Origin: Thozetella sp. PMI_491
Lineage: Eukaryota; Ascomycota; Sordariomycetes; Chaetosphaeriales; Chaetosphaeriaceae
NCBI GenBank assembly: GCA_021432635.1
Contig: MU270098.1
Span: forward strand, 62,001-126,000
DNA length: 64,000 nucleotides
Direction: 5' to 3'
Shown here: positions 18,601 to 56,108 of the stretch, piece by piece
Position numbering within the stretch: the stretch's first letter is position 1
Layout: each line of letters opens with the position of its first letter
Program-made: the position numbers and the translations under genes
The notes under the pieces: generated by a model
What the model was told of the DNA's origin: nothing
The model's input: the letters and a program-made list of their open reading frames with translations, nothing else
Databases searched by the model: none

Positions 18601-19724
18601 TGCTGGAACCAGTCTTCCGCCATTGAGTAAGTCTTGTGTGAGTCGAGACAGCTATCAAAGGTGCAGAGGTAAGGCTTCAGGTCTTGGTGTACGTGGCGGT
18701 TCCATTTATCAACGTCTGTGAGCTGTAGCTCTGGGATGATGACGAGACCGCAAAAGGGACAAGGAAAGGGCTGGCCGGAATGCAGAGTCTGTGGTGGTGG
18801 CGGTGGGGTGAGCTCGAGGGCTTCGAGCTCGTTTACGGAATCTTGGGTCGTGATTTCCGTGGGGGCGCGAATGATTCGGGAGAAAATGGAGGAAGGAGCC
18901 GTAGAACCAGTCTCGGACTTCCACTCGGCGATAGACGCCGCTGGCTTGATGGACGGAAGAAGTCTTTCTGGAGCTGGCTGGCCCCGTCGGGTGGGCGAGC
19001 GGGAGTTAGAACGAGACCTATCCCGTAGTCTCACTAACCTGATGTGACGTCGCCTTCTGAAGTTTGCCTTGCCTAGCCTCTCCGTCAGATATGTCGGCGC
19101 TTTGGGGAACATCGAGGCCGCTGCTTGGATATCCAAAGCAGCCGTGAGCTCTGTCACGGGCACGTTGCCATCGTCCGCGGAAGGATCTAGGTGGCTAGGA
19201 AGCAGTTGATACAGATTGTCCACGATATCGTCCGCCTCTTCCAAATCCTCGTCAAGGCCAGGATCGGGTGTATGAACTGTTCCACTAGCATCCTCACCGC
19301 CAATCTCCGCACTACCTTGGCCCTGTATTTCGATGTGTCCTGGTTGAAGGGGAACAAGTCTCTCATTTACTATTCGGTCAACTGGTGCTCTCTAAGCTGA
19401 TCTTGGTGACTTACTGCTGCTCAGAATTCTGTCAAGATCCCGGAGAAGATCTAGCGTCGCGTGCCGTAACTCGACTGACCAGCGCAATGCTTGATCAAGA
19501 GAGTTGGAAGATGCACCGCTTTCGTGGCCCCATGAGATCAGTCGGCTTCTGCAGTTGTCTGCGGTGATATAAGCATCGGCGGCAGCAGACCTGTTCGCGT
19601 CGAGGGCTGAGCACAGCTTTGCGAACGCTTGAATACAATCTTCAAGGTTCGCAGCGACCGGAGCCCTCGCTCGCAACGCAACGGTCTGCTTGTTGCGGAA
19701 TGCTTGCACCGCCTGCACATCCAT
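15605..19724 (-). CDS. NLR-like STAND protein: fungal C2H2 module, NB-ARC ATPase, TPR repeats; five exons
   Basis: A 1296-residue signal-transducing ATPase. Exons on the minus strand are 19724-19415, 19339-17098, 17046-16595, 16543-15967 and 15914-15605, with a summed length divisible by three. The N-terminus (RSRLISWGHESG, then LRHATLDLLRDL) resembles the helical start of fungal C2H2 proteins. Next comes a C2H2 region with CPFCG, PYLCTFDSC, WFQHELECH and CTLCGC-type cysteine/histidine clusters. The NB-ARC ATPase follows: FVGRE, Walker A GDGGIGKTSAA, Walker B WLLVLDNVE, sensor LITTR and the GLPLA-equivalent KLPLA. The last third holds TPR-like helices such as YAKSYHNRAMVMMWQGEHADAI. Such proteins sense non-self or self-mating partners in fungi and act like animal and plant NLRs (family knowledge). 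It is divergent from the DUF7580 gene at 20182 across 457 bp. Confidence 0.88.
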
Positions 19725-38512: not shown

Positions 38513-40475
38513 TCATAGGTCTGCTCCACTGACGCCATATTTCCTTTTCCATTCATCATTGATGTCTTGATAATCCCTAGGCCCGTAATGCTCCGTAATC
38601 TCGGCCAAAAAGCTCTTTTTCCTGCGGTGCTGGAGACCGAGATCCCTGAGCAAGAGGTCGAAATACGGGACGGCATCGAAAATGAAAGATGGGTACCGAT
38701 CGCCCCAGTCAATAGGATATCTCCAGTGACCAAAGCGATTGTGGAGGACTGATTGGTACTGGAGCTCCTGTAGCGCACCTGCGTTACCAAGCACTGCTGC
38801 AGGGTCCTTGATTAGGCGCCCGGAGAAGTAGGCAGCTACCCAAAGTGACTGGACGTGCGCCGTGATGATGTTGCTGAAGTTGGTGACAGTTCCCACAAAT
38901 GCGACGTCTCGGCAGCGCAGAAACCGGGACGAAGAGGGCACCATGAAGCGGTGTTGCACGAAGGGAGTAAGGCGTGAGTATGGTGTAACCGAATCCTTTG
39001 TCTGGATGCTCTCCAGGCCTGTCAACGGTTTGTAGTTCTTGTTCCATATTGCAGGGGTTTTGAGGCGCGGGAACTGTTCCATGATGTCTTTATCCGCGCC
39101 AGCGATGAGATCGTTATAGCTCGGATCCTCGTCACTCAGACGGTGCGGGACACCGAGATCTTTCTCGATCCCTTCTGGCAGGAGTTTCAACGGAACGGCG
39201 TGATTCCAGCCGGTTGTGGCCACGAAGACATCGGATTTGAGTACTCTGCCGCCTACTAGGTGAACCGAATCCTGGCTCAGATGGTCGACTTCGCTGATGT
39301 AGATCTTGACGTTGCAGTTCTTGATGACATCAAAGAAGTTGGTGTCGTAGTTTAAGATGCCGAAGCTAGTGCCTGTGTGCATCACGCTGATCCACGGCCT
39401 CAGCTTAGAAGTTTCGCCATGGGTGGCGTAGGCATTGAGCGAGACGACATCGTCCTCCATGACTTTCCAAAATGCGTTGACGAGAAACCTGCCGATGGCT
39501 GTTCCATGAAGGAACCTGCGAATACCTGAATAGCCATCCGCTGCACCCCAGATGCAGGGACTGAACCAAGTCAAGAACCGCGTATCTAGCTTTCTTAGCA
39601 ATTCGCACGGGATAAGGTACAGTGGGGGTGTCTCTTACTAGCAAGCCCTTCAATCCATCTTTTCAATGGCGTGACATGCGAGGGTGCCATCCAACATGGG
39701 CCGTGCCCAGATGCTACCGGCCTAGGTAAGCTCACGTTCGGCCTGTTTTCTCATCGCGAGTACCACTTACGGCGAATGACCCAGTTGACATTCACGCCGG
39801 CCGTTGCGTACGCGTATACGACGTCCCAGGCGAATTTATTCCCGCCGAACACGGTAACCGATTTTGCCGTCTTGATCGTATCACTGTTCTGCGGGAACTG
39901 CTTAGAATGAAATATCTTGCCCTGAAACTCCTCCTGGCCCTTGAAGGCTGGCAAGAAAGCCTGAGACGTAAGACCGGTTGCAAAGATCAGCTTCCGCGCC
40001 AATAGCTTTTGCTCCTCCGAGCCTGAAGACTGGACAGTGAGCAGCCAGCCACCCTGGTCCGTCTCTTGGTGCTCCGCGGAGAGGACCTTGGTGTTGAATC
40101 GAATGAGATCGGCTATCCCAAACTTGGCGGCATAGGCCTCGTGGTATTTATGAATGACGTGGCCCGGGATATGCTGGTTCTTCTGCACACCGAAGGTCTC
40201 GGTGTCCATGGGAAAGTCAGGATATTCATAGCTCCCCAGTAGATTATTACTCTTCAAGCTGGGATACAGTCGCTCTTCGGCCCATGTGCCGCCCAAGGTG
40301 GACTGGTAGTCGAAGATGGCGAGCGACGCGTCTGGACTGACGGCATGGTATTGCTTCGCCGCACAAAGCCCATACCAGCCTGGTATGTATCAGCAATCGA
40401 CAATTGACCAGAGATATACGAGTAGTGCGCGCGCGACAGACCTGCTCCGATAACCACGCAGTCGAGAGCCTCCAT
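38513..40475 (-). CDS. FAD-dependent monooxygenase (flavin-containing monooxygenase type), four exons
   Basis: A 596-residue flavoprotein. Exons on the minus strand are 40475-40442, 40379-39771, 39713-39639 and 39585-38513, with a sum divisible by three. The tiny first exon plus exon 2 create the FAD-binding DCVVIGAGWYGLCAAKQY, followed by LGGTWAEERLYPSL. Further marks are FATGLTSQAFLP, a second dinucleotide fold KSVTVFGGNKFAWDVVYAYA and, after two short introns, GHGPCWMAPSHVTPLKRWIE and TWFSPCIWGAADG. Fungal relatives oxidise secondary metabolites; ustiloxin and phomopsin-type clusters contain related FMO-like enzymes. It is the leftmost of the possible tailoring genes next to the two RiPP precursors; membership of that cluster is inference. 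Confidence 0.85.
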
Positions 40476-40992
40476 TCGAATTGCTTGGTCGCGAAGCTCT
40501 ATTCTCGTGTTTTGGCAGAGCAAACGTTCGGAGGCGGCATGCTGACGCCCTCGTTGTTTTGAGCGGGGTAGCTGCCTTGGCTGTCTTGGCTGTCAGCACG
40601 CGGATTTGCTCTGTTTCGGTGCTTTGCTCCGTCGATCTGCCTTAATCTTAAGGTGATATGGCAATCGCCAACTGTCACCATTGCCCTACATGGCTGGCAA
40701 TAATTTATTCTTGCAAGCCTAGCACAACGATAGTATTACAACACAACCTCTAGTTAGTTATTACCGCGGGTTTCAAAAACCACTGTCTCGCATTTGCTAT
40801 TGTCAGCAATATGAAAAGATACAGAGAGCTTGTAGGGCTAGCAGCGAGCCGGAGGAGCGGTTTATTGGCTCTGAAAACCCTCACATTTAGCTAGCCTTTA
40901 TCCTGTACCAAGCTAACAAACGTACAGGGGTAAATTGCAGATTATCTCCCTCGATTCTCTAGGGTAGACCCACCTACATTCAACTCATATTC
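40476..40992. other. Intergenic
   Basis: About 515 bp between the tandem monooxygenase and hydrolase genes (both minus strand). It presumably holds the monooxygenase promoter and hydrolase 3' end. Confidence 0.4.
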
Positions 40993-41766
40993 CTACTGGA
41001 ATTCCGCTGCAATTTTCTCAATGACCTTCAGTATGGTATCTGGCTGGCTCAAGAAGGGCGAGTGGCCGGCGCTGCAATGCTCATGACGAAATGCCCTTCC
41101 ACTAACTGCTTCTGCATCTGCTACCATCTGTTCCTGGAGAAACAAAGGAATGCCCTGGTCGTTGTCACAGAAAAGGTACGTTGAAGGGTAGTGGAGGTAC
41201 GCGGCCTGGGTAATTGCCGTCAACTGAGCCACGGCAGGGCATTCGACAAGCTGAGAGGCCCACTTCTTCTGTTCCGCCGGCGAAAGGTCATTATAAAAGC
41301 GCGTTTCTGGGTCAAGCATCATGCACATTCCATTCTCCTTCGTCGGAATAAATGGCGGTAGCTGGAGAGGACTACCAAGCATTGAACCGAGCGACTCCCC
41401 AAGCGGCACGATCCAGGCCGTGACGAATAGCAAATGGATCACACCTCCGGGTTTGCCCTGTTCGGTGCGTGCCTTCTTGCCGAAGGTTGGGTCGACGGCT
41501 TGCGAAGTCACAACGCCGCCGTAAGAGTGGCCCACCACAATGACATCCTTCCCTTCCACCTCTATCAATTCTTTCAGCTGGTGCTGAATTGCTTGGGCAT
41601 CTTCCATAAGACCAATAGGCGGAAGTGCGCCAACAGATGGCTGCCTCGGACAGGCGGTAGGAAAGTCATGCGTTTCGATCAAGTCAAGTTGCGTTTTATA
41701 GAACTCTGGAGGATGCCATGAGCCATGAACCATCAAAATGGTCGGGCGGGCGTTGGGTAATTCCAT
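40993..41766 (-). CDS. Alpha/beta hydrolase
   Basis: A single-exon gene of 257 residues. The first strand and oxyanion loop read PTILMVHGSWHPPEFY, the nucleophile elbow is VVGHSYGGVV (Ser in GHSYGG), the acid lies around YLFCDNDQGIP, and the catalytic His in HEHCSAGHSPFLSQPD. It resembles the small esterase/lactonase-like hydrolases common in fungal metabolite clusters. No signal peptide is seen, so it is cytosolic. It is in the same direction as the FMO and cupin genes on either side. Substrate unknown; a peptidase role is not indicated. Confidence 0.85.
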   Translation of the reverse strand: MELPNARPTILMVHGSWHPPEFYKTQLDLIETHDFPTACPRQPSVGALPPIGLMEDAQAIQHQLKELIEVEGKDVIVVGHSYGGVVTSQAVDPTFGKKARTEQGKPGGVIHLLFVTAWIVPLGESLGSMLGSPLQLPPFIPTKENGMCMMLDPETRFYNDLSPAEQKKWASQLVECPAVAQLTAITQAAYLHYPSTYLFCDNDQGIPLFLQEQMVADAEAVSGRAFRHEHCSAGHSPFLSQPDTILKVIEKIAAEFQ

Positions 41767-42779
41767 GGTATACGTGAATAAATTGAAGACGACGTTCGCT
41801 ATAGAAATAGGGATGAATTATTGTAAACGGCACTCCCCAAGTCGGGGCAGGCAGGTAAGTATATCAACTTGCTAAACAGCTTTGCAGGGGTATCCAAGGT
41901 ACCGACACACCTACCAGAAGCCCTCTAGAGAGGCTTGCACGAAAGTTGCTGACAAGTCCCAAGCAGCAGCTACCTGAGCCAACCAAGCCGACTGGATGGT
42001 TGCTCAAGTTTTGTTTAGTGCTTACCCCGGTGTACACCCAAGGTGGATAGCAAGGTTTTACTGGGCCGCGCACTATTCCGCCTTTGCCGCTTATGCGATA
42101 GCCAGGGCGCCTGTATCAACACTATAGGACAAACTAGGTATGTGTCGATCAGCAGCATGCATGTCATATCCGGAAATAAAGATGACAGCATTGTACAACA
42201 GCCCATCTTTGGCATGAACATTACCTTTTTTTTGTCAGCTTCTTTCTCCTCTCTGTATAGAAGAACTCGTAGTTTATGGTAGAGGAATGCTTCGTGCTAT
42301 GCCCTGTGGATCTGTCTTTATTTCAGTGTACGGCACGAGCATTTGTGTGCGCAACAACTTCATGGCTGTTTTAGCCCCAGTCAAGGAAGCAACTGTGCAG
42401 TAATATAGTCAATGAGGTAAGTGAACGAGAGTCTATGAACAGAGTCTATGAAGCCAGCCATTTTCTTGCTCATGCCATTACCAGGCGGGTTAGGCGAGGT
42501 CAATGTCAGCCCTACGAAGCTACCGGAACTAGCTGTTCGGCATACGACTCGCGCTGTTGGCCGAGTGCACTGACCCCACAGCAAATCATAATGGTCCCGA
42601 TTTAGGACTTCTGCACGAGACACATATCGATTATGCTGCACTAATTTATCACGCTCGGATATAAGCCAGTTTAGTGCTTGGTCGCTGTGGTCTAGCTGAC
42701 TTACTCCTCAAATGCTACATTCTAGAGAGGAGCTAGTTCATGTTTTGAGACAGAAGATTGGTTTTGTAATTTTGACTAA
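41767..42779. other. Intergenic, no gene recognised
   Basis: About 1 kb between the hydrolase start and cupin stop. Only short unsupported frames. Confidence 0.4.
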
Positions 42780-43358
42780 TTAATCCTCCTTGGTCATCGG
42801 ATCCTTGGATCGGATATAGTCGTACATGGACCTGGGGCTCTGTGCCAACAGGAATACAAATTCTTCGCTCTCCGAAGCATTCCTCACTCGGTGTAAATCC
42901 CCTGCTGGTACGCTGAGGAACGTGTCAGGAAGCATTTCATAGTTCTTCTCAGCCCCTTCCTTTGTCTTTGTCTCTATGACAGCCTTGCCAGAAAGTGGAA
43001 TAAAATAATCCCAGACTTTAGTGTGGAAGTGGGCTGGTACTTCGCCGTGGCCGGGCTTTAGTCGAATGACAGTCCACTTTAAATCACCTGAAGAGTGGAC
43101 AAGAGTTTGATGCCAACCCCCATCTCTTTCTGTACCCTTTCGGAGTGACTGTAAGGATTGAACATAGTCAGGTCTCGTCGCGTTTGTGACTGTTCGAGGA
43201 AAATCCCAGGGGCGAAGTGCAGCTTTCAACGGCCTGGACATAGAACTGCCAGCTCCAACACGGAGACTGCTTCGAACCAATGTTGCCATCATAGCGTCTT
43301 GGCGAGCAAAATATCCGAAAAGGGGCTTCTTTTGAAGTTGGGCAAGGAAAGATCGCAC
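42780..43358 (-). CDS. Cupin-domain protein
   Basis: A single-exon frame of 192 residues. The cupin motif is seen as PGHGEVPAHFHTKVWDYFIP followed by LSGKAVIETK (first conserved motif), and VPAGDLHRVRN (second motif with Pro-x-x-x-x-His). Metal ligands would be the two His of HFH, a downstream acidic residue and His of LHR. The N-terminus is basic and Ser-rich (MRSFLAQLQKKPLFGY, then MATLVRSSLRV), perhaps a mitochondrial targeting peptide or a start placed too far upstream; later ATGs at residues 23-24 or near residue 40 are possible. Function is unknown. It lies between the hydrolase and precursor A in the candidate RiPP cluster. Confidence 0.75.
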   Translation of the reverse strand: MRSFLAQLQKKPLFGYFARQDAMMATLVRSSLRVGAGSSMSRPLKAALRPWDFPRTVTNATRPDYVQSLQSLRKGTERDGGWHQTLVHSSGDLKWTVIRLKPGHGEVPAHFHTKVWDYFIPLSGKAVIETKTKEGAEKNYEMLPDTFLSVPAGDLHRVRNASESEEFVFLLAQSPRSMYDYIRSKDPMTKED

Positions 43359-44211
43359 GAAAAGGGAGTATTGTGAGCCAGATGATTAGCAGCTGCCCTT
43401 TCCGGTGATGGTCGCGGAACGCTGTCGTACAACCGTGTGTGGGTAGCTTGCATGTAAGAATAGCTTGAAGCGTCTGATCTTTGTAGAGGGAAGGCTTATA
43501 TATACCCGGATCTATACGGATTACGGAATATCTGTTTGGGAGGGCCCGCGGGGAACATGTCAGTACATTAGCGCTACCCTGCTCATGCGGAGCTTTTTTA
43601 ACCATTATGCGGGGGCTGACAGGGAACAAAAGCTAGCGGTGGCAAGGTCTCCCGAAGTAGTTAGTCACCTGCCTTTTCTCACCGTTTGACCTTGTTTTGG
43701 GGTAAGTAAAGCATTCCCCGTAACTGCTACCTAGCCAGTCGACGTTCCGTCCCTTCGTTTCTTGTCACTTTGGTCGGTTTCAAAATATGCATATGTGGTA
43801 TAGAGGCTAATGTTTGAGCGGCGCTTGATGTGCCGAACGCTGAGGTGACCACAAAATAGCTCGCCTAACCAAGCCGGACCAGACAACCAAGACTCGTATC
43901 TATCCTTTCCTTTGTTGTGTACTGGATAGTGTACGTAGGTACGTGCTCGAAGGAACGTGTCAGATTAGTGCCAACGACGCTAACAACGCTAAATCAGGCA
44001 TTACATGCTCTGCACTAACGAAGGGCATTTTTGCGACAAATGGAATGAAATTTCGGCCACCTACAGATAGAGCACAATGAAGTACCACTCACTGCCTCGG
44101 CCAGGTAAATAGCAAGGTAGCTTTGATGACTAAAACTGTAGCCTTAGTGCTCCTTTGTTATCAACAACCCCTTAATTCTACTAACAAGTAGTGTCAGAGT
44201 TCAGCATCACA
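43359..44211. other. Intergenic
   Basis: About 850 bp between the cupin start and precursor A stop; nothing recognised. The cupin promoter must lie here. Confidence 0.4.
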
Positions 44212-44733
44212 TCAGGCCGTATCTGGCTCCCTCTTGATGGCGGCAAAGGTATCGACCCCGTAAGTACCCGGCTCCCTCTTGATGGCAGCAAAGGTATCGA
44301 CCCCGTAAGTACCTGGGTCCCTCTTCACATCGCCAGCCTCGGGCTCCGGGTCCCTCTTAATAGCACCGAAGGTATCAACCCCGTAGGTGCCCGGCTCTCT
44401 CTTGATGGCGCCGAAGGTGTCAACTCCATAGGTGCCTGGCTCCCTCTTCTTTCCGATGGCCTTGGGCTCTGGATCCCTTTTGATAGCACCAAAGGTATCG
44501 ACCGAGTAGATTCCTGGTTCTCTCTCCTTGATGGCAGCAAATGTAGCTACCGAGTAGCTGCCAGGCTCGATGCCCGGACTTCTCTTGCTAACCCCCTGCT
44601 AACAAAGTAAAAAGTCAATATGTGACGCTACTGAAACAAATGATAGAATTATAACATAGCGGCCCCTAATTACCGTCAGTGGCGCGGCTAGAGCACCGGA
44701 TGCAAGGAGGATGAGGAGCGTATTGGCCTTCAT
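44212..44733 (-). CDS. RiPP precursor peptide A: secreted, Kex2-processed, six repeated core units; two exons
   Basis: A 148-residue precursor; exon 1 is 44733-44674, exon 2 is 44598-44212, with a 75-nt GTAATT...TTAG intron. Exon 1 encodes a complete signal peptide (MKANTLLILLASGALAAPLT). Exon 2 is a chain of units ending in Lys-Arg (one Lys-Glu-Arg): PGSYSVATFAAI, PGIYSVDTFGAI, two of EPGTYGVDTFGAIKR, and two with TYGVDTFAAIKR. They are interrupted by short spacers DPEPKAIGKKR and DPEPEAGDVKR, and the last unit is EPDTA before the stop. This is the architecture of fungal dikaritin-type RiPP precursors (ustiloxin, phomopsin, epichloecyclin, victorin): signal peptide, Kex2 sites and a multiply repeated core with an aromatic residue for oxidative cyclisation. 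It is divergent from a UstYa-family gene at 45356. The core sequence is not one I know. Confidence 0.85.
44230..44590 (-). repeat. Coding tandem repeats of precursor A
   Basis: Six imperfect core-encoding units of about 45 bp, with two 33-bp spacers. Synonymous third-position changes between otherwise identical units (for example TTC versus TTT for Phe) suggest the amino-acid sequence is held by selection rather than by very recent copying. Confidence 0.85.
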
Positions 44734-45355
44734 GATGATATGATTTGAGAAAAAGAAGGGTTTTTTATCTCCTCGTAAGTTTGGATACGTCCTGTTGCTG
44801 CTGTTGTTGCTTCTGCTGTTATAGATGGCTGCTGCTACAGAGATATCTGGGAAAGGCTTGGCATTCTTTTATAGTTTGAATTGACATGTACACTCTCTCG
44901 CCTTGGTAAGATTTCTGACAAACTATGATACTCTTTCCCAAAATGGAAGGCTGAGGAGGAACAGCTCCATATTTCTTCACTCTTGCACTAAATTCTTTCA
45001 CCGAAGTGCGCTCCCTCGCTGGCTTCTACATGATTTGGCACCTCGTATATTTCGTTTTCTCTGCGTGCGAGGCATGAAGCGACAAAAACAAAAGTTCCAC
45101 GCCGGTGGGGCCGATAGTCTTGTCCGTCGGACTAACTAGAGGATAGGGTCGGCAAAAAGTTACCGATGACCTGCCCGAAACGTGACCCCCCCAATTCATG
45201 ATTGAGCGAACGAGCGAGCCAGTAGCACCGTTGCACAACTTGGGTCACTTATGTCGACCCAATTCTAACATCTATAGTGTAGTCACTGTGCTTTATAGGA
45301 TCTGAGACATTTTTTTTCACACTCTTGACTCCCACCAGCATTAAGCTATTCATTA
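44734..45355. promoter_or_regulatory. Shared intergenic region between precursor A and UstYa-family gene 1
   Basis: This is 622 bp between divergent start codons. Nothing else in it is recognisably coding. It probably carries a bidirectional promoter for the precursor and its processing enzyme. A palindrome-like tccgtcgga occurs near 45123, but no regulator can be named. Confidence 0.55.
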
Positions 45356-46376
45356 ATGATGTGGAAGGGAAAAGGATACACGCCCTTGAACTCCGAACCG
45401 AGACTTTCAGAGTGTCTCTCGTCTAATATAGACGAGAATGCCCTTCAAGTTTCCGGTTCGTTGCGCCGAACGCCGAATTGGGTTCTTGCCGGTGCTTGCG
45501 TTCTCACGATCATCAACTTTGGGCTTTGGCTCATCACATGGCGAAGTCTGCATAAAGAACCCTATAAATGCCATGGAGGGATAAACTCAGCGCTCAAGGA
45601 AGCTTGGAGCTACAGTATGCCGGCAATCATGGACCAAAGACCAGTTCTGATAGATATGTCTAGGTCCAATCTACGATCGCATAGATCTTCGATTGACAGA
45701 GCAGAGAACGAACGGAACACTCTACCCACCAAGGGAGGCATCAGTGGCGCGCTCGCTTCCCAACAATGCTTCAGATGAACAATGGGCTGAGTGGGAACTT
45801 GTGAGGGTTTTCCCAGTGACACGCGAGGAGCTGGTCAAGATGAATGTCGACCCAACAACCGCTGTGAAACTCGAGGATCATCTCTGGGGCTTAGGAGATG
45901 ATGCGTACGCTACAGGTCTAGATGTTTTTCACCAGCTCCACTGCCTCAATTCGCTCCGAAGGCGAGTTTACTCCCAATACTACTTCTCAGAGGAGCATCA
46001 CCACCACGCCGAGAGCTGGACACCTGGCGACGGTTTGACCATCGACGAGATCCACATCAACCACTGCGTGGATATCCTCGCACAAGCGTTGCGTTGCAGT
46101 GGAAACGTGGCTCTGGTTTCAATGCATTGGATGGAGAACGAGCATTACCCGTTTCCGGATATGAGTGTGGATAGGAAATGCATTGACTTTGATGCTTTGG
46201 TTCAGTGGCGTAAGGAAAATACGATTGACATGAAGAAGTACATAGAGGTGATGGGAAAGCCTGCCGGGGTGGTGCAGAGGCCCACTCCAGATGGCTATTA
46301 CCAGTACATTGCAACGGGCGAGGTGAACCCTCACCACATCAACGGCTCGAATATGGACGAGGACTATATTGCTTAG
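45356..46376 (+). CDS. UstYa-family (DUF3328) oxidative cyclase candidate 1, two exons
   Basis: A 311-residue protein; exons 45356-45614 and 45700-46376 sum to a multiple of three. A cytosolic N-terminus is followed by one membrane helix (WVLAGACVLTIINFGLWLIT) and a lumenal domain. Both family hallmarks HxxHC are present: VFHQLHCLNSLRRRVYSQYY and HINHCVDILAQALRC, as well as NGTLYPP and the C-terminal KCIDFDALVQW. UstYa/UstYb proteins catalyse oxidative macrocyclisation of Tyr- or Phe-containing cores in the secretory pathway (family knowledge). It is divergent from precursor A, its most likely substrate (inference). The splice acceptor could be 45699 or five bases later; the former keeps frame. 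Confidence 0.88.
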
Positions 46377-47585
46377 AAGAGTTGCTCGGCAAATATTAGT
46401 ATACTCGCGGCTTGAATATTACTTCCATGGTCTCTCTCCAGGGCCGGTATTTGTCAAACAGGTGACGTGCAGGCAGAAGGTCTAGCCGATGTAGCGTGAA
46501 AATCTGCTCCCTTTCCCCGTATGGATAAGGCACAAGATGCGTTCTAGCACTAATAATAGCCTGCTGTGGCCATATCCACTCACCAGCTGTCTTCATAGCG
46601 ACCCAAAGCAGTCAGGCAGGGGAGTCTGTCGGACACTACCCGACTTGCACACTAGTGTCTAATGGACATAGGAGGAGTGGACAGCGGTGGGGAAAAGGGC
46701 CGAGTTAACGACTGCTTACCTTGTTTTGCTGAGTTCCGAGGTGCCGATCCAGCTCTGTATTCACCTCCGCTTCCGAGTCTCGACCCAGCCACTTTTGAAA
46801 TATTGGTTGGCGCTTAGTATGCTACTTGCCAAAGTTGTCCCCGAGTCAAACCAGGATTCTCGCAGCTACTCATTCTGGGAGATTATTGACCAGGTGACGC
46901 TCCCTGGAAGGAAGGTGCATTTTGTCATTCCAATGCTTTCCGGCTTAGTGAAACTGAGCCTGGACGCGACGGGTAGGTTATGGGAACTCCTTCTTGATAC
47001 ATACGTCGATAGAAGTCTAGGTATACTAACGCTATTCAACGGATATGTCGGCCACGCTACAATCCTCCTTCCTGAATGGTGACCAAGCGGCTTTCGCCGC
47101 TGCCATCCTTGCAGTGTAGTGCAACTGGCGGTGGAGTATGTGGCTGCAACAAAAGTTCCAATCACCTATACTACTAAGCTAGAAGGTTCGAATCTGCAAG
47201 CTCATAGGTAGAACCGCGAATTTTTGCAATCCACTAGTGCACTTACGCGGCTACCAGATAAGATACCGACCTAGGAAATGACTTTCTTGGGCTGGCTGAT
47301 TCCGCCATCGCCAGCAAAAGGTTCCACTCCATAAGATGTTTGGCGGGGTTCCGTAGGAATGTACATAATATCATCGAGTGGTCGGCGGCTAACGTACCAG
47401 AGGCACAGCTAACCCTGCCTCGACTGAAAGCATCACCTTTCTCTTTCTTATATTACCCCTTCTTTTATTACCCCGGCTGCTGGGTGAGCTATCCACCGCA
47501 CTTCATGAAACAAGAGACCACCACGGGCGGGATCGTACAGCGTCATGTAAAGCAGATTCTAATTTTACTTGGAATATCGGAAAGG
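46377..47585. other. Intergenic, no gene recognised
   Basis: About 1.2 kb between UstYa-family genes 1 and 2. A 131-codon plus-strand frame at 46687-47082 has no recognisable motif and is not called. The in-frame stretch 47340-47585 upstream of the gene 2 start may be 5' untranslated sequence. Confidence 0.4.
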
Positions 47586-48239
47586 ATGTACTCGAAGGAG
47601 GAAGAGGAGAGCCTTGTCCAGGCCGAAGAGGTTTCCTCCATATACCCCAACAAATTGTCCAGCCTCCTACTCCACCGAAGTGGCTCGGGGAGTGGGATGT
47701 GGCGGGCTGCAGCGCTTGCGACTCTACTGTGTCTCTTCATCCTTATTGGATTCCTCATCTCAACAGTCGTCCAGCTTGCACCAAATTTTCGACAGGGCAC
47801 GGCGCAAATCTTCAAAAGCCCCTGTGGTTCTACGCCATCGGAGGCGAAAGCCCGGGGCTGTCACTTTGACATCATATCTTTCTGCTGGCTTCACGAGCAA
47901 TGCTATGACGCTGAGTTAACTCGATTATTTGACAGTCTAGCACACTGGGAGTGGTACTACGACCCAAATAAGACACAGCGGGCTAGCAGGGAGGATGTCG
48001 AGTTAGGCCAACTCACGAACCTATACGTGAGCGAAGAGTACCACCACCAGCACTGTGCAATCATGTGGCTCAAGATGCACCGAGCGATCATAGGCCTTGG
48101 GAAGCCGGCCATAGACAGCTACATGGGAAATCTTGATCACACAAAACACTGCGCGTCGGTATTTGGGCATCAGGATGAACCGATGGATTCGATTGACACA
48201 ATTATCCGCCTCAAATTCCCGGATTGTGGGATTGAGTGA
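47586..48239 (+). CDS. Divergent UstYa-like protein 2 (two HxxHC motifs), single exon
   Basis: A 217-residue protein from the ATG at 47586; the frame is open further upstream to 47340, but the usual short charged N-terminus before the helix favours this start. One membrane helix (RAAALATLLCLFILIGFLIS) is followed by a lumenal part with CGSTPSEAKARGCHFDIISF, ECYD-type CYDAELTRLF, then EYHHQHCAIMWLKMHRAI and LDHTKHCASVF. The two HxxHC motifs (HHQHC and HTKHC) are those of the UstYa family, but the CGSTPSEARARGC-type start and short length mark a separate branch that often sits in fungal gene clusters. It lies between the two precursor/UstYa pairs and could act on either precursor (inference). 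Confidence 0.75.
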   Translation: MYSKEEEESLVQAEEVSSIYPNKLSSLLLHRSGSGSGMWRAAALATLLCLFILIGFLISTVVQLAPNFRQGTAQIFKSPCGSTPSEAKARGCHFDIISFCWLHEQCYDAELTRLFDSLAHWEWYYDPNKTQRASREDVELGQLTNLYVSEEYHHQHCAIMWLKMHRAIIGLGKPAIDSYMGNLDHTKHCASVFGHQDEPMDSIDTIIRLKFPDCGIE

Positions 48240-49606
48240 CCCTAAAAGCTATCCGAAATCCCAGCACATGGCAACACGCCCCTGAGCTCATTTTTCATAA
48301 ACCTAATACGAAAATTCGGTTGACCGTCTTCTCAGCTGCAAGAGAATGACCACTCTGGCAGAAAGTTCAACGAGAGCGAGAAGGTCATGTCGACTGGGCT
48401 ATAAAACTTAACTCCCTTCCACTGTGCGAATCCTGAGTGCAGGCCCATCATCCAGTTGGTGTTTAAGCTTGACTCGGTAGTTTATATGTAGACGCGGACC
48501 AACCTCTGCTGATAGTCGAGAGTTGCTAGATTTGACGAGCCGTAAGGGGGCAGCTTCGCGGTCGCTGGGGCCCGTGGTCTGCTTCCTGATATCCGAAGTC
48601 TATGTAACATCCTTGGCGAACCTACCGATACCGATTATCTGCGCAAAGAAAACCCACGTGTCTCGAGTTTACTGGGATAGTCGATAGAATACACTAATGT
48701 CTGGATTCCTGTCTCCATCAGCTGTTATTACAGCATTAAAATACAGCCATGTTATATTGGATGCATCGCAACGGATATCGCAAGGCTGAGTAACGCTAGA
48801 GCCCGTCAGTAATAGGATGTTATGGGGTCGTCTTCGTGACGCAATGTTGGCCCGAGAAGTGCCATACGACACCTGACTTGTATCTAAGTCAGCGATCCTC
48901 TTGAATACATGGCGAGGCTAATCATCTCTAAATTTGTTCACTATATTTGATTTCACAACTTTGACTGTCGCGGAAAGTGGCATTCCTTACCCCCATGAGA
49001 GTAAAAGTCGAGGTATCTCTATTGGTAGTGTAGTTGTAATTTCATTTGGTACTGCCAGCGTCATTATTGGTAGTATTAGTACAGTTCTCAGCTGGCGACA
49101 AGTCCGCCCGCAGGGGCATTGCATCGACGGAATTGAGATTAAATAATGTTTCGCGACTTGGATACTTGCCTCTCTTGAATGCTTTGACTTGGAGAACTAA
49201 AATCGTAGAAGCTGAGGTGCTAGCTTGTTGGATTATCCCTCTAGCAGCTTTCTTCAGTCAGTCCCGATGTTGCAGCAACGGAACAGAAGCCGGTGAGCCC
49301 TTGGATTGACCTGCCAGCTCTACCGGGGAGATTCAGAAAGACGGCCCTGAGGCGTGCAGGACTTTTCCCGAAGATGGAGGGAGAAAAGTAGGCGAGAAGG
49401 CCTAGCGCACCCTGTTACTTTCGAGGCGCCGTTAGCAGAGGGCTGTGTTGTCGATTTCGAATAAACGGAAGAGTAAATCGCCCTGCTCCTTGGAACCAGT
49501 AAAGCTTAGTGAACCCAGCCCACCGCGAAGCCCTTTACGTCTTGCTACTGGCTTCCTCTAAGATACTGTCTACTGAAAGAAGGTCTGAGAAGCTCGTAAG
49601 CTTTTG
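48240..49606. other. Intergenic, no gene recognised
   Basis: About 1.4 kb. A plus-strand frame at 48934-49146 contains a hydrophobic stretch (ISIGSVVVISFGTASVIIGS) but lacks an ATG near its start and any recognised motif. Confidence 0.4.
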
Positions 49607-49774
49607 AATCATGTAGCTTCTCGAGTATTCGCGGGGCTGGCAGCGTATTGCGGTGCGCGGCACAAAGTTTGTCTGTGGAAAGACGGTTCCCCACGGAGAA
49701 CGCAGTTATTATACTACATAGGCGAATGTATAATATACAGACCCTCCTGTTTGGGAGAGGGGCATGTATCGGCA
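49607..49774 (+). repeat. Dispersed repeat, copy 1
   Basis: About 168 bp that recurs in the same orientation at 55943-56108, beginning with atgtagcttctcgagtattc in both. I estimate identity around 85 percent, with mostly single-base substitutions and a few small indels. It has no evident coding content and may be a remnant of a mobile element. Confidence 0.8.
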
Positions 49775-50075
49775 GCTCTAACGATGATGTTTGGTAAGCT
49801 AATAGTACTGTACTTTATTCTCGCCATTACGATGCCTCTCTTGCAGCCCTAACAAGACTCTATCATATGAGTCGCTTTGATGCCTCCTGCATGGCTGCTT
49901 CTTCATTCTTCCACTTTCCTCCCTAACCTCTTAGGGTATTCCATTCTAGACGCGGCGTATCCCACTGGCATCATCATATCTTCGCAGTTGTCTTAGTGTT
50001 TGCCCTCGCTGTTGCAGCTTTCCCATTTAGAAGACTAGCAAAGAGGCCATAGGAACTGGGTTAAAGCTACTCCTT
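49775..50075. other. Intergenic
   Basis: About 300 bp between the repeat copy and the 3' end of UstYa-family gene 3; nothing recognised. Confidence 0.3.
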
Positions 50076-51010
50076 CTATATCGTGGTCCCTGCGATAATA
50101 TAGCTGGCAGGCAGCACGTCGTCAGGGTTAGGCGGCTTCACATAGTCATCCGGAAGTTCATCATCTGGCGGTACCTGGTTGTCCGTGGCCCATTGCCGCA
50201 CCGAATCAAAATTCTTACATTTGTGGCGCGTATGAAAGTCCGGAAAAGCTCGCGGATCCTTTGGGTTGAACCAAACTTGCCCGAAAACACTGGTATCGAC
50301 AGTGCACATGAGGGCTTGGCGGAGGCTGTCGACGCAGTGCGAGGCGTGCAACCGTAAATATCTCTCTGGATCCCTAAACGCGTTCTCACCACGCGCCTTA
50401 TAATACTCGTAGTTGTACCATAAGCTTTTGCGCAGGACGTCAAGGCAGTGCAGACGGTGAAGCCCCTCTACTTCAACGATATAGCCGCCGCCGTATCTTT
50501 GCGATCGCTGGTAGTAGTGGCTGGATAGCCCGGCCTTGGCCGCCTCAGAAGCAGAAATAACTACTGGGCGATTATCGATTCCAAGTGCATTCCAAGCTTC
50601 ATCGACCTCCGGAGATGCCGGCTGCCGATATATGTTCTCGGCCAGGAAAGACCCATTAAACGTCTTCACCTCGTATTTAATATTGACATCTTTAAATAGT
50701 GGTGCTATCAAATAATTAGAACGTCATTAGAGGATTGTGCTATTCATTACTCACAATACTGGGTGGTATATGTCGTGCATTCTTTGTTAAGATCTATGTT
50801 ATATCGTCCTAGTGCGGCACCCGACAACATCGACAAAAGGACAGTTAATAGATATGAGATGGTGAGGCGAAGACTCGGCTGCCATCTCCGTCGCTGTGGA
50901 CGATAGCTGGAAGGAATTTGCCTCATCACAAACTCGCCGTCATTATCTGAGTCGTCCATACTTTCAGCCAGAAGTGATTGCCGGCTGTCTTGCGTGCGTT
51001 TTTCCGCCAT
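50076..51010 (-). CDS. UstYa-family (DUF3328) oxidative cyclase candidate 3, two exons
   Basis: A 294-residue protein; exons 51010-50755 and 50704-50076 on the minus strand sum to a multiple of three. The layout is textbook for the family: cytosolic N-terminus, one helix (LRLTISYLLTVLLSMLSGAA), then QYSPLFKDVNIKYEVKTFNG across the splice join, PASPEVDEAWNALG, and the two catalytic motifs LHRLHCLDVLRKSLW and HASHCVDSLRQALMC. The tail KCKNFDSVRQW is conserved too. It is divergent from precursor B (52201) across 1.2 kb, an arrangement parallel to precursor A with gene 1. Expected site of action is the ER/Golgi lumen, before or after Kex2 cleavage. Confidence 0.92.
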
Positions 51011-51190
51011 TTTATCAGAAATTGGAGATGTTCAAAGTTCAAGTTCAGTAGGTATGTAACAGGAATCCAGATCACAAAACAGAGTACGTTGCAAGGTTGA
51101 TAGCATACTTATATATAGGTATGAGAGGATGTTCAGCAAACACCGAAACTCAATAAGGGATAGTGACCTTATCTCGAGAGAATTTATGGC

Positions 51191-51465
51191 GAGAAGGATA
51201 TGACGGCCTATTATGCATATTTTATAAGGAGTAGTATATACGAAGAATGGAAGAAATACAGTCATTAACTCTAGATCAACCATGGTTACTATGCGGGGTT
51301 TTCATGCGCTTACTTCCCTTCGTGTCTGCTAATATATCTATCACACTGGTCTTGACTCGACCATATTTAAAGAAAGGTTCCTATTGGCCTTGAAGCTGAG
51401 AGACTCCTCCTATGAGCTGCTTTCTAGCTGTTATCCCCGTATGGTTCTACCGTCCTTCCCCTTTC
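51191..51465 (+). repeat. Intergenic direct duplication, copy 1
   Basis: About 275 bp, recurring 320 bp further right at 51511-51770. Shared blocks include agtagtatatacgaagaatg, ttttcatgcgcttacttcc, tatcacactggtctt and ttgaagctgagagactcctc. I estimate identity at roughly 80-85 percent with small indels. Confidence 0.85.
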
Positions 51466-51510
51466 AAAGTCAATACGAGATGGCAATCCTACGTCTAGAG
51501 ACCCACCAAT

Positions 51511-51770
51511 GAGAAAGATATGACAACCTATTGCATAAGAAGTAGTATATACGAAGAATGTACGAGATAAAGTCATGAAACCTGATCAACCATGTTAACA
51601 TGCGGGATTTTCATGCGCTTACTTCCATGCTTGTCAGCTAATATATGTATCACACTGGTCTTGGCTCGACCATCTTTAAAGTTTCCTATTGGCCTTGAAG
51701 CTGAGAGACTCCTCCCGATGAGCGCTTTCTAGCTGTTATCCCCATATGATTCTACAGTGCTTCCCTCTTT
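51511..51770 (+). repeat. Intergenic direct duplication, copy 2
   Basis: Second copy of the block at 51191-51465, same orientation, about 430 bp upstream of the precursor B start codon. The copies differ by scattered substitutions and short deletions, so the duplication is not recent. No coding sequence is evident in either copy. Confidence 0.85.
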
Positions 51771-52200
51771 GGGTTGTAAGCTGATTACCAGCTCTCGTCA
51801 GTGCTGATTTATGCGTCATTTCTTGCTGAGATCGACAAGACAGTACTTTGGGGATCTGCGGTTGCTCGTCTGAGGATGGATGTTGCTAACAGGCCTTTGT
51901 ATCTATTACAAAGTGATCACGCTCGAGACATCGTACCCCAAGAGCTCCCCTATGAGCAGGCATTTGTAAGCACCTCAGAATCATCGCCGATGCTGGGGAT
52001 TATATGGTACGTATGGTCAAATATACAGATAACGAATTAATCTATATAAACAGTGGATTCCTCAACTTAAAAGCGAGTGTCAGAACAACATTACTGCACA
52101 TCCTTGTTCTTTATCCTCTACCCGTGGTGACTTCTCTGCGTTCAAAACGTCCAAAGCCATACAATAACTACGTCTAGGCACGTATCAATCAATCAACACA

Positions 52201-52641
52201 ATGCGTTCTACGTATTCATGCATTCTTCTCTTTGTAAGTCTTGCTTTTGCACTACCTACATTGCCGCCGAGAAGCACCACAAAAGGGCGGGATGTAGCTC
52301 TCGCGTCAGAAGGCATCGAAGAACGGCAGTTATATAGAGACAACGGGGGCGGCTACAGCGCCCTGGTTCCTGGGGATGTCGAGAAGCGACAGCTATACCG
52401 AGACAACGGGGGCGGCTACAGCGCCCTGGTTCCTGGGGACGTTGAGAAGCGACAGCTATACCGAGACAAAGGCGGCGGCTACAGCGCCCTGGTTCCTGGG
52501 GACGTTGAGAAGCGACAGCTATACCGAGACAACGGCGGCGGCTACAGCGCCCTGGTCCCTGGGGATGTCGAGAAGCGACAGCTATACCGAGACAACGGCG
52601 GCGGCTACAGCGCCCTGGTTCCTGGAGATGTTGAGAAGTAA
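52201..52641 (+). CDS. RiPP precursor peptide B: secreted, Kex2-processed, five repeated core units
   Basis: A single-exon frame of 146 residues. A signal peptide (MRSTYSCILLFVSLAFALP) and a short leader ending GIEER are followed by five units of 21 residues, each built as Q-L-Y-R-D-N then GGGYSALVPGDVEKR. The units end in the Kex2 dibasic Lys-Arg; the third carries Lys in place of Asn, and the last stops after Glu-Lys. Each unit has two tyrosines (positions 3 and 10), candidate sites for aromatic side-chain cross-linking. The layout is that of dikaritin-type precursors and Kex2-processed repeat proteins. It is unrelated in sequence to precursor A. It is divergent from UstYa-family gene 3. 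I know no characterised peptide with this core. Confidence 0.85.
   Translation: MRSTYSCILLFVSLAFALPTLPPRSTTKGRDVALASEGIEERQLYRDNGGGYSALVPGDVEKRQLYRDNGGGYSALVPGDVEKRQLYRDKGGGYSALVPGDVEKRQLYRDNGGGYSALVPGDVEKRQLYRDNGGGYSALVPGDVEK
52327..52641 (+). repeat. Five tandem 63-bp coding repeats of precursor B
   Basis: Five head-to-tail 63-bp units begin with cagttatatagagac or cagctataccgagac and differ at only a few positions, mostly synonymous. The near identity points to recent expansion or gene conversion between units. Confidence 0.92.
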
Positions 52642-54688: not shown

Positions 54689-55015
54689 TTATAATCGCGC
54701 AAATTGCTGCGTGGCAACAGGCGACTCGAGCAGCGTATTGAGGTTCGACATGAGATCTTTTGCCACTTGCGACGGCTCGAGATGCTCATAGACTCTGGCA
54801 TCGGGGATGGGCGTAGTGATGGGCTCAAGCTCATGCCACTTGACGCCTAGTAACTTTACATGTTTATCGGTCCAGCAGATGGGAACGACGTAGAGAGAGT
54901 CGCTGGCGTGCTTATACATAATATTATAAAGTGATCCAGGTTCTGGACGAATTTCTTTTTGCCTAGGCGACACCTTTTGTCTAGTGAGGCGAGTTCTTAC
55001 AGGCGGTCCGGGCAT
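54689..55015 (-). CDS. Hypothetical small protein
   Basis: A 108-codon frame with ATG start and coherent composition: a basic N-terminus (RTRLTRQKVSPRQKE), a middle with SLYVVPICWTDKHVKLLGVK and an acidic/amphipathic end (YEHLEPSQVAKDLMSNLNTL). No signal peptide, membrane segment or known domain is visible. It could be a lone gene, an exon, or the remains of a larger one. The neighbouring DNA on both sides appears decayed. Confidence 0.3.
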   Translation of the reverse strand: MPGPPVRTRLTRQKVSPRQKEIRPEPGSLYNIMYKHASDSLYVVPICWTDKHVKLLGVKWHELEPITTPIPDARVYEHLEPSQVAKDLMSNLNTLLESPVATQQFARL

Positions 55016-55254
55016 TTTTTTTTGTGAAAAGAGTTCGAGAGGACGCTAATTTCGCGCATGAGAGTATACTCTATGAGTCGAAGCTGTTAGCCATTTGGGA
55101 CTCTCCACGTGTCCAGGGAGAGCAACGGTATCATCGAAATGATCAACACAGAAGAGACAAAGGAGGGCCGAAATGATATTCATCAAATTATTCAGGTGTA
55201 ATAGCGTTTGTACGATTATTTTGTCTCGTACTAACCAATTAGCGGCTCAACCGC

Positions 55255-55500
55255 CTATGCTGCTGTCTGGCTTTTTGTGACCAGCTTTGGTTTGTTCTTA
55301 CTGTACGGTACGGCAGAGGTCCAAGCGAGCGCCAGGTTATACATGCTCCTCAGCTTGGGGAGATAGCCCGCCCCGAGCTTGGTCTTGCGTGTCTCCATCA
55401 CCTTCACCTCCAGGATCTCAGCCTCGTCCCACCAATCCTGCTGCACGAACGTCGATGCTTGGTCGGCCATGCTCGTCAACGTCTCGGGACTAGTGACAGC
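55255..55500 (-). pseudogene. TPR-repeat relic of a STAND/NLR-type protein
   Basis: Reading leftwards, the frame gives SPETLTSMADQASTFVQQDW, then WDEAEILEVKVMETRKTKLG, then LPKLRSMYNLALAW before a stop. This is the signature of the kinesin-light-chain-type TPR repeats of fungal NB-ARC/NACHT proteins (pattern H-P-x-T-L-x-S-M-x-N-L-A, then E-A-E-x-L-x-x-x-V-M-E-T-R-K-x-x-L-G). Only about one and a half repeats remain, with no ATPase domain nearby. It is the remnant of a second receptor-type gene besides the intact one at 15605-19724. Confidence 0.65.
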
Positions 55501-55942
55501 CCTCGACGACCCAACAAACTCATGGCTTTTTCAAAGCCGTTCTTTGCAGTAGCTGAACTGTTTGCCTAGCGCCTTGAATGTGGCCGGGGCACAGGCAATT
55601 GTGATCCGCGAGGGCCATGCAGACATCAAGACCACGGAGATGTTCAATGACGAAATTATTAATTCAAGGCGCTCCACAGCACACAATCAGTGGGCGCCAC
55701 TCGTATGGTGCTAGTTTCGTTCAGCCAGCCGATTGCCTTGTTGAATGGCTACATTCAGCTTGGCGCCACAGCTGAGCCAAAATACACTAGTATGACACTT
55801 GGGTGTGTCGGCGATCACGACATTTAAATTCAGCACTCTGCCACCGTGAACACATGTCCTAACTTTTACATGATTATTCTCATCCTAATACTTTAGTTGC
55901 TTGAACTTTGGCCCTTAAAATGACAATTACTGCTCGCTCCCC
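55501..55942. other. Intergenic
   Basis: About 440 bp. A plus-strand stretch near 55570-55690 reads coherently (AIVIREGHADIKTTEMFNDE) without a recognisable family, perhaps more decayed coding sequence. Confidence 0.3.
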
Positions 55943-56108
55943 AATTATGTAGCTTCTCGAGTATTCGCGGGGCCGGCAGCGTATCGCGGTTCACGGCACA
56001 AAGTTTGACCATGGAAAGACGGTTTCTCCGGGGAGAACGCAGTGATACTACATAAGCGAATGTATAATATACAAAACCTTCCTGTTGGGAGAGAGGGCTG
56101 TGTCGGCG
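55943..56108 (+). repeat. Dispersed repeat, copy 2
   Basis: Second copy, same orientation, of the repeat at 49607-49774, about 6.3 kb away. The two copies flank the UstYa-family gene 3 / precursor B module. Confidence 0.8.

What the first reader, a model, noticed from the sequence alone, without database searches (positions are those of the whole stretch)
38513..52641. Candidate RiPP gene cluster with two different precursor peptides, each divergently paired with a UstYa-family gene
Two secreted Kex2-site repeat precursors (44212-44733 and 52201-52641) have unrelated core sequences. Each is head-to-head with a UstYa-family gene (45356-46376 and 50076-51010), and a third, divergent UstYa-like gene (47586-48239) lies between. 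An FAD monooxygenase, an alpha/beta hydrolase and a cupin sit immediately upstream. In known dikaritin clusters one precursor with UstYa/UstYb proteins makes cyclic peptides. A modular dual-precursor layout with two parallel precursor/cyclase pairs within 8 kb is, as far as I know, not a described system.
Basis: partly seen in the sequence, partly recalled or inferred. Interest (0 to 1): 0.95.

Follow-up and report, generated by a model that had tools for sequence, protein, structure and literature searches.

The report
Two neighbouring fungal cyclic-peptide gene modules
A fungal chromosome carries, side by side, two unrelated genes for repeat-built peptide precursors, each back to back with a gene for the copper enzyme type that cross-links such peptides; the parts look real, but this is a two-fold case of a known kind of gene cluster rather than a new system.

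Summary
Two open, secreted Kex2-repeat precursors are present: P1 (44733-44212, -, one intron) and P2 (52201-52641, +). Each is head-to-head with an open UstYa/DUF3328 gene (45356-46376 and 51010-50076). A third HxxHC protein without a Pfam match (47586-48239) lies between. Repeat units show purifying selection (pN/pS 0.15 and 0.03). Head-to-head precursor/UstYa pairing is usual in this 72-Mb, UstYa-rich genome: 7 of 9 other precursor candidates in 25 sampled UstYa stretches. The two UstYa proteins are about 30% identical, with different closest paralogues. Their promoters share no excess of short words. The P2 module is bracketed by a 167-bp direct repeat with only two copies found. No tyrosinase (nearest 130 kb) or S41 peptidase is near. 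Only 1 of 24 paralogue places of the monooxygenase and hydrolase lies beside a UstYa gene. The best reading is two independently derived, asperipin-like modules that are neighbours, not one integrated dual-precursor pathway. Dikaritin clusters with "one or more" precursors are already reported (Venturia, PMC9632046). No homologue of either precursor was found, so both products may be new. Relatives, expression and chemistry could not be tested.

The parts
44212..44733 (-). P1, secreted Kex2-repeat precursor (148 aa, one intron 44599-44673); units such as EPGTYGVDTFGAI-KR, plus DPEPKAIGK and DPEPEAGDV spacers
   Evidence: spliced ORF with signal-like N-terminus; pN/pS 0.153 among 6 units; one place in genome at E<=1
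45356..46376 (+). UstYa-A, DUF3328 protein head-to-head with P1 (323 aa; intron 45615-45663; HQLHC...HINHC)
   Evidence: Pfam PF11807 E=1.9e-41 on the second exon ORF; model and motif; best paralogue 61% at C88
47586..48239 (+). UstYa-B, divergent HxxHC protein of a family without a Pfam match (217 aa; HHQHC...HTKHC)
   Evidence: no Pfam hit; 23 homologues besides itself, 10 with an organism name, all fungi; HxxHC positions invariant or nearly so in 24 rows; 12 of 15 paralogous places within 5 kb of a UstYa match
50076..51010 (-). UstYa-C, DUF3328 protein head-to-head with P2 (294 aa; intron 50705-50754; HRLHC...HASHC)
   Evidence: Pfam PF11807 E=1e-54 on the second exon ORF; model; best-scoring paralogue 40% at C2, shorter exon matches to 58%
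52201..52641 (+). P2, secreted Kex2-repeat precursor (146 aa); five units QLYRD(N/K)GGGYSALVPGDVE(KR)
   Evidence: ORF and unit comparison, pN/pS 0.034; one place in genome at E<=1
44734..45355 (.). bidirectional promoter region of P1 and UstYa-A (622 bp)
   Evidence: gene models; no excess of words shared with the other promoter
51011..52200 (.). bidirectional promoter region of UstYa-C and P2 (1190 bp), holding a roughly 270-bp duplication (51191-51464 / 51511-51770, 84%)
49607..49773 (+). left copy of a 167-bp direct repeat bracketing the UstYa-C/P2 module
   Evidence: 85% identical to 55943-56107; the only two copies found in the genome
55943..56107 (+). right copy of the same direct repeat
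42780..43292 (-). cupin (Cupin_2) gene; membership in the P1 module inferred from position only
   Evidence: Pfam E=8.9e-8; no paralogue in the genome at E<=1e-5
40993..41766 (-). alpha/beta hydrolase (Abhydrolase_6); position only
   Evidence: Pfam E=3.2e-24; 1 of 20 paralogue places (C23) within 5 kb of a UstYa match
38513..40475 (-). flavin monooxygenase (FMO-like), open with three introns; position only
   Evidence: Pfam E=2.6e-12 on ORF 39751-40389, none on 38513-39634; ten open models, the best chosen by eye; four paralogues, none beside a UstYa match

Best explanation
Two separate precursor/UstYa modules of independent descent lie next to each other. In each, a secreted repeat precursor enters the secretory pathway and Kex2 cuts it at KR sites into several near-identical peptides. 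The divergently encoded, membrane-anchored, copper-dependent UstYa (DUF3328) enzyme cross-links the conserved tyrosine of each core unit to a neighbouring side chain; basic end residues are then trimmed (for P1 perhaps also an N-terminal EP/DP, a Ste13-type site, recalled). P1 is matured by UstYa-A, probably with UstYa-B as partner, giving a Y-x-V type ring (YGVD/YSVD, like Y-x-I of ustiloxin and phomopsin). P2 is matured by UstYa-C into a different product around YSALVP. Shown: open gene models, repeats, Kex2 sites, HxxHC motifs, purifying selection, pairing geometry. Inferred: splicing, cleavage, cross-linking, partner assignment and products.
For: Open genes and motifs. Selection on repeat peptides. 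The HxxHC(x)nHxxHC motif is the binuclear copper site of the DUF3328 enzyme CctR (PMC12435403, abstract and passages). Head-to-head pairing recurs at 7 of 9 other precursor candidates. Independent descent: A versus C about 30% identity over some 110 residues, with better matches elsewhere. P1-UstYa-A pairing: the only other sampled precursor with an EP/DP-x(1,2)-Y unit is at L022, whose UstYa is the closest to UstYa-A (53%) among the precursor-linked ones sampled; 2 of 2 against 0 of 9 (post hoc). UstYa-B-like places lie within 5 kb of a UstYa match in 12 of 15 cases, and beside UstYa-A paralogues in L027 and L035. In a published survey the DUF3328 gene count peaks at the position next to the precursor (PMC7329392, section 7).
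Against: No expression or product data. Chance adjacency of two precursors is not very likely (P about 0.16 if the genome has 40 precursors, 0.01 if it has 10), which leaves room for a selected cluster. The region upstream of UstYa-B shares slightly more 9-base words with both promoters than shuffles do (9 vs 6.1, reached by 24 of 100; 14 vs 9.0, reached by 14 of 100), not significant. P2 lacks the Y-x-I/V motif. STE13 is not predicted to act on ustiloxin/phomopsin precursors (PMC6339444, passage). UstYa-B is not statistically joined to UstYa by profile comparison (probability 9.9%), only through a bridging paralogue that just passes the Pfam cut-off (25.3 against 25 bits); and L022, with the P1-like precursor, shows no second HxxHC ORF in its 10 kb.
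Confidence: 0.58

Rival explanations
1. One integrated dual-precursor cluster: both precursors, three UstYa-type enzymes and the FMO/hydrolase/cupin are co-regulated and deliver two peptides together.
For: Both pairs within 8.4 kb; no other gene recognised between them in the ORF list (the small ORFs there were not searched against families); no second precursor candidate in any of 25 other UstYa stretches of 9-10 kb; chance adjacency modestly unlikely.
Against: No excess of words shared by the two bidirectional promoters; distinct enzyme lineages; a repeat pair brackets the P2 module alone; FMO has no UstYa-linked paralogue (0 of 4), the hydrolase 1 of 20, the cupin no paralogue at E<=1e-5.
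Confidence: 0.22
2. Mixed enzymes: the UstYa proteins act in combinations across both precursors (for example A+B or C+B dimers), so the locus makes a combinatorial set.
For: CctR is a homodimer through its TM helix and four-helix coiled coil (PMC12435403); ustYa and ustYb are both needed, with ustQ, in ustiloxin biosynthesis (PMC6514808, passages); UstYa-B-like genes lie near UstYa genes (12 of 15).
Against: The unit pattern follows the UstYa-A lineage (small and post hoc); AprY is the only UstYa homologue of the asperipin cluster; no interaction data.
Confidence: 0.1
3. The precursors give linear secreted peptides (signals or small effectors) and the UstYa genes act elsewhere.
For: In a published survey 6120 of 7878 Kex2-repeat proteins have no DUF3328 gene nearby (PMC7329392).
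Against: Tyr in every core unit; UstYa head-to-head in both and in 7 of 9 others; mating factors and pheromones had, with three exceptions, no DUF3328 neighbour (PMC7329392).
Confidence: 0.07

Closest known systems
Asperipin-2a cluster (aprA, aprY, aprT, aprR; Aspergillus flavus)
   Same: Precursor with a single UstYa homologue and no tyrosinase among its four genes; Tyr cross-links (PMC6514808, passages)
   Different: No transporter or reductase recognised among the 20 ORFs scanned here; unrelated cores; two precursors
Ustiloxin (ust) and phomopsin (phom) clusters, the founding dikaritins
   Same: Signal peptide, KR-separated repeats, UstYa-family enzymes; P1 Y-x-V resembles their Y-x-I
   Different: Nearest tyrosinase match 130 kb away and no S41 peptidase match on the contig; no methyltransferase among the 20 ORFs scanned. 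A second phomopsin precursor and cluster copy (phomA') is recalled, not checked
Venturia inaequalis dikaritin clusters (nine, each with one or more precursors; PMC9632046, passages)
   Same: DUF3328 gene near one or more Kex2-repeat precursors
   Different: Whether precursors sharing a cluster have unrelated cores or separate UstYa genes is not stated in the passages seen
Kex2-processed repeat protein (KEP) survey, 7878 proteins (PMC7329392, abstract, section 7 and passages)
   Same: UstYa gene count peaks next to the precursor; some KEP genes accompany each other
   Different: The paired KEPs it counts (767) are among those without DUF3328; it states that the pair types were not investigated

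Membership tests
KEP / UstYa-type fungal RiPP (broad dikaritin sense) | secreted precursor with tandem repeats separated by Kex2 sites | tested here: met
   P1 and P2; signal peptide judged by eye, no predictor run
KEP / UstYa-type fungal RiPP (broad dikaritin sense) | UstYa/DUF3328 gene adjacent, with HxxHC(x)nHxxHC | tested here: met
KEP / UstYa-type fungal RiPP (broad dikaritin sense) | cyclised, side-chain cross-linked product | not testable with these tools
   needs LC-MS/MS
Dikaritin, strict sense of the phomopsin/ustiloxin clusters | tyrosinase (PhomQ/UstQ) in the cluster | tested here: not met
   nearest PF00264 match on contig C84 at 245392, 130.7 kb from P2
Dikaritin, strict sense of the phomopsin/ustiloxin clusters | S41 peptidase in the cluster | tested here: not met
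   7 genome matches at E<=0.001, none on C84
Dikaritin, strict sense of the phomopsin/ustiloxin clusters | Y-x-I core | tested here: not met
   P1 has Y-x-V, P2 Y-x-A
Pfam UstYa (PF11807) | UstYa-B reaches the curated cut-off | tested here: not met
   its paralogue L035:3076-3771 just does (25.3 against 25 bits), L027:2505-3296 does not
Single dual-precursor cluster | co-conservation or co-expression of both modules | not testable with these tools
   no related fungal genomes held; no precursor homologue in the protein collection

The most novel reading that the evidence does not exclude
A composite dikaritin locus in which a second, unrelated precursor/cyclase cassette was captured beside a first one by a segmental insertion whose scars are the unique 167-bp repeats, so that one strain secretes two structurally unrelated cross-linked peptides from one locus, with the Pfam-invisible HxxHC protein (UstYa-B) as a general partner subunit of UstYa enzymes.
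Probability: 0.15. Interest if true: 0.65.

Novelty: new member of a known kind. Interest (0 to 1): 0.42.

Why it matters
No relative of either core sequence was found, so the products may be new cross-linked peptides. Two enzyme/precursor pairs side by side are a natural test of how UstYa enzymes choose substrates. The UstYa-B family, near UstYa genes in 12 of 15 paralogous places yet outside the Pfam model, is a concrete candidate for an overlooked partner enzyme.

Tried and rejected
Shared regulatory motif between the two bidirectional promoters: words of 8-10 bases are at the shuffled level (18 vs 18.6, 5 vs 5.1, 1 vs 1.0, with the second copy of the 51.2-51.8 kb duplication left out). Rejected.

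Recent local duplication of one pair into two: rejected, since UstYa-A and -C are about 30% identical and the precursors unrelated.

FMO, hydrolase and cupin as proven tailoring enzymes: not supported by paralogue context, though the FMO is open through three introns and could still act here.

Transposon origin of the 167-bp repeats: only two copies found, no clear terminal features seen by eye. Unresolved.

Precursor homologues in 5.8 billion proteins: none at E <= 0.1. Candidates must share 5-residue words, and for P2 only the 8000 best were scored. The window's own precursors were not returned either, so the collection does not hold every such gene. A control with randomly substituted copies showed that phmmer would score half-substituted copies at E below 1e-20. 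Five core strings are absent from the paper library. No PDB chain matches the UstYa-C exon at E <= 1.

In the precursor survey I counted L011, L014, L015, L022, L025, L029, L032, L033 and L034 as candidates, and left out L017 (a 590-aa repeat ORF) and repeat ORFs in overlapping frames. L015 has no, and L025 one, dibasic site, so 7 of the 9 are strict cases; their signal peptides were not tested. L035 was scanned with a looser rule. The stretches were chosen by match strength and contig, then by hand, so they are not a random sample; 25 stretches is roughly a quarter of the about 100 UstYa loci I merged by hand from 149 exon matches, and a few adjoin each other.
Full report
SETTING. The window is bases 62001-126000 of contig C84 in a 72.3-Mb, 157-contig assembly. 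Its introns, UstYa genes and precursor type mark it as an ascomycete fungus (inference; no name is given). A six-frame search with PF11807 finds 149 UstYa exon matches (150 of 203 candidates scored), about 100 loci by my hand merging, which makes the genome very rich in UstYa genes.

THE OBSERVATION. All five genes are present and open at the coordinates given. P1 is read from 44733 down to 44212 with one intron, and P2 from 52201 to 52641 without one. Both start with a hydrophobic signal-like stretch (judged by eye) and continue as units ending mostly in KR. P1 holds two kinds of peptide: EPG(T/I)Y(G/S)VDTF(G/A)AI-like units and two short DPEP spacers. P2 repeats QLYRD(N/K)GGGYSALVPGDVE five times. 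P1's first unit ends in KER and P2's first follows EER, neither dibasic. Differences among units are mostly synonymous per site: pN/pS 0.153 over six P1 units and 0.034 over five P2 units. Concerted repeat expansion also keeps units alike, but it does not favour synonymous over amino-acid change, so the peptide itself appears selected.

THE ENZYMES. UstYa-A (45356-46376) and UstYa-C (51010-50076) match Pfam UstYa with E=1.9e-41 and 1e-54 on their second-exon ORFs. With the introns chosen they give 323 and 294 aa with one N-terminal membrane segment (by eye) and both HxxHC motifs. In the DUF3328 enzyme CctR that motif is the binuclear copper site (PMC12435403, abstract and passages). UstYa-B (47586-48239) has no Pfam match even at E=10. 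It has 23 database homologues besides itself; 10 carry an organism name, all fungi: Aspergillus species, Venturia, Colletotrichum and Podospora. Its HxxHC positions are invariant or nearly so in 24 rows. Its own genome holds 15 further UstYa-B-like places (16 matches, two of them merged), 12 of them within 5 kb of a PF11807 match. Against it: profile comparison with canonical UstYa gives only 9.9% probability. The bridge is one paralogue, L035:3076-3771, which scores 25.3 bits against a cut-off of 25; another, L027:2505-3296, has no hit. I call UstYa-B UstYa-like with that reservation.

IS THE ARRANGEMENT SPECIAL? I fetched 25 stretches of 9-10 kb around other UstYa genes and scanned them for repeat precursors (24, the last). 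Nine hold a candidate, seven of them with four or more dibasic sites, and none holds two. In 7 of the 9 (5 of the 7 strict ones) the nearest UstYa match is head-to-head with the precursor, in one tail-to-tail and in one co-directional (genes in between were not excluded). Head-to-head pairing is therefore the usual style of this genome, not a peculiarity of the finding. Two precursors in one place is the unusual part. If precursor density extrapolates (9 of 25 stretches to perhaps 40 in the genome), the chance of at least one pair within 8 kb under random placement is 0.16; with 10 precursors it is 0.01. So adjacency alone is weak evidence for a common function.

ONE CLUSTER OR TWO? UstYa-A's best relatives in the genome are at C88 (61%), C15 (53%), C20 (49%) and C76 (47%). 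UstYa-C's best-scoring relative is at C2 (40% over 189 residues); shorter exon-limited matches reach 50% (C4, 80 residues) and 58% (C8, 64 residues). A and C are about 30% identical to each other over some 110 residues. The two bidirectional promoters share no more 8-10-base words than shuffled sequence; the region upstream of UstYa-B shares a few more 9-base words with each than shuffles do, not significantly (24 and 14 of 100 shuffles reach the count). A 167-bp direct repeat, 85% identical and found only twice in the whole assembly, sits at 49607-49773 and 55943-56107, on either side of the UstYa-C/P2 pair. The pair thus looks like a segment that arrived or was duplicated as a unit, though no transposon hallmark was seen by eye. 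The P1 module is UstYa-A plus UstYa-B: the same order and direction recurs at L027, and an A-type/B-type neighbour pair at L035, in both without a recognisable precursor; L022 and L018 have A-type genes without a B-type ORF in their 10 kb. P1 and the L022 precursor, whose UstYa is 53% identical to A, are the only 2 of 11 precursors compared whose units hold EP/DP-x(1,2)-Y. This is a small, post hoc sign that enzyme lineage and precursor type go together.

FLANKING GENES. A cupin, an alpha/beta hydrolase and an FMO follow P1 on the same strand. The cupin has no paralogue at E<=1e-5. The FMO has four, none beside a UstYa match. Of the hydrolase's 20 paralogue places one (C23) is within 5 kb of a UstYa match. 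Their membership rests on position. The nearest tyrosinase match is 130 kb away and no S41 peptidase match lies on the contig, so this is not a phomopsin/ustiloxin-type cluster. The simplest known parallel is asperipin-2a, where one UstYa homologue is proposed to make the successive Tyr cross-links (PMC6514808, passages).

RELATIVES AND LITERATURE. Neither precursor has a second place in the genome at E<=1 or a homologue at E<=0.1 in the protein collection, and five core strings are not in the paper library. The collection did not return the window's own precursors either, so absence there is weak evidence. That dikaritin clusters can hold more than one precursor is in print: nine clusters in Venturia inaequalis, each with one or more precursor genes (PMC9632046, passages). 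A survey of 7878 KEPs found that UstYa genes peak in the position next to the precursor, and states that the types of KEPs that accompany each other (767, among those without DUF3328) were not investigated (PMC7329392, section 7). My searches for a described pair of unrelated precursors with separate UstYa genes showed none in the listings or the passages read, but subscription papers are mostly not held.

VERDICT. The parts are real and probably make two cross-linked peptides not seen before. The layout is two copies of an ordinary module side by side. The claim of a new kind of system is not supported by what could be tested; the co-conservation test that would settle it needs fungal genomes not available here.

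Noticed in passing
49607-49773 and 55943-56107: 167-bp direct repeat, 85% identical, only two copies found in the genome, bracketing the UstYa-C/P2 pair; origin unknown.
   Followed up: partly
51191-51464 and 51511-51770: Duplication of about 270 bp (84%) inside the UstYa-C/P2 promoter region.
   Followed up: partly
L022:7167-7910: A single precursor candidate beside a UstYa gene interleaves two different core types (EPAEYTFSTLKIIGKDGAEVEKR and EPQYTSPNALRLKEKEKR).
   Followed up: no
L011, L014, L015, L022, L025, L029, L032, L033, L034: Nine further repeat-precursor candidates near UstYa genes in this genome, all with different cores; it may hold dozens.
   Followed up: partly
62087-64000: C-terminal end of a polyketide synthase (three ACP stretches and a thioesterase) at the window edge, minus strand.
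   Followed up: no
17058-19391 and 54689-55530: An NB-ARC (NLR-like) ORF, and fragments that read like TPR repeats near the P2 module (the TPR label is by eye).
   Followed up: no
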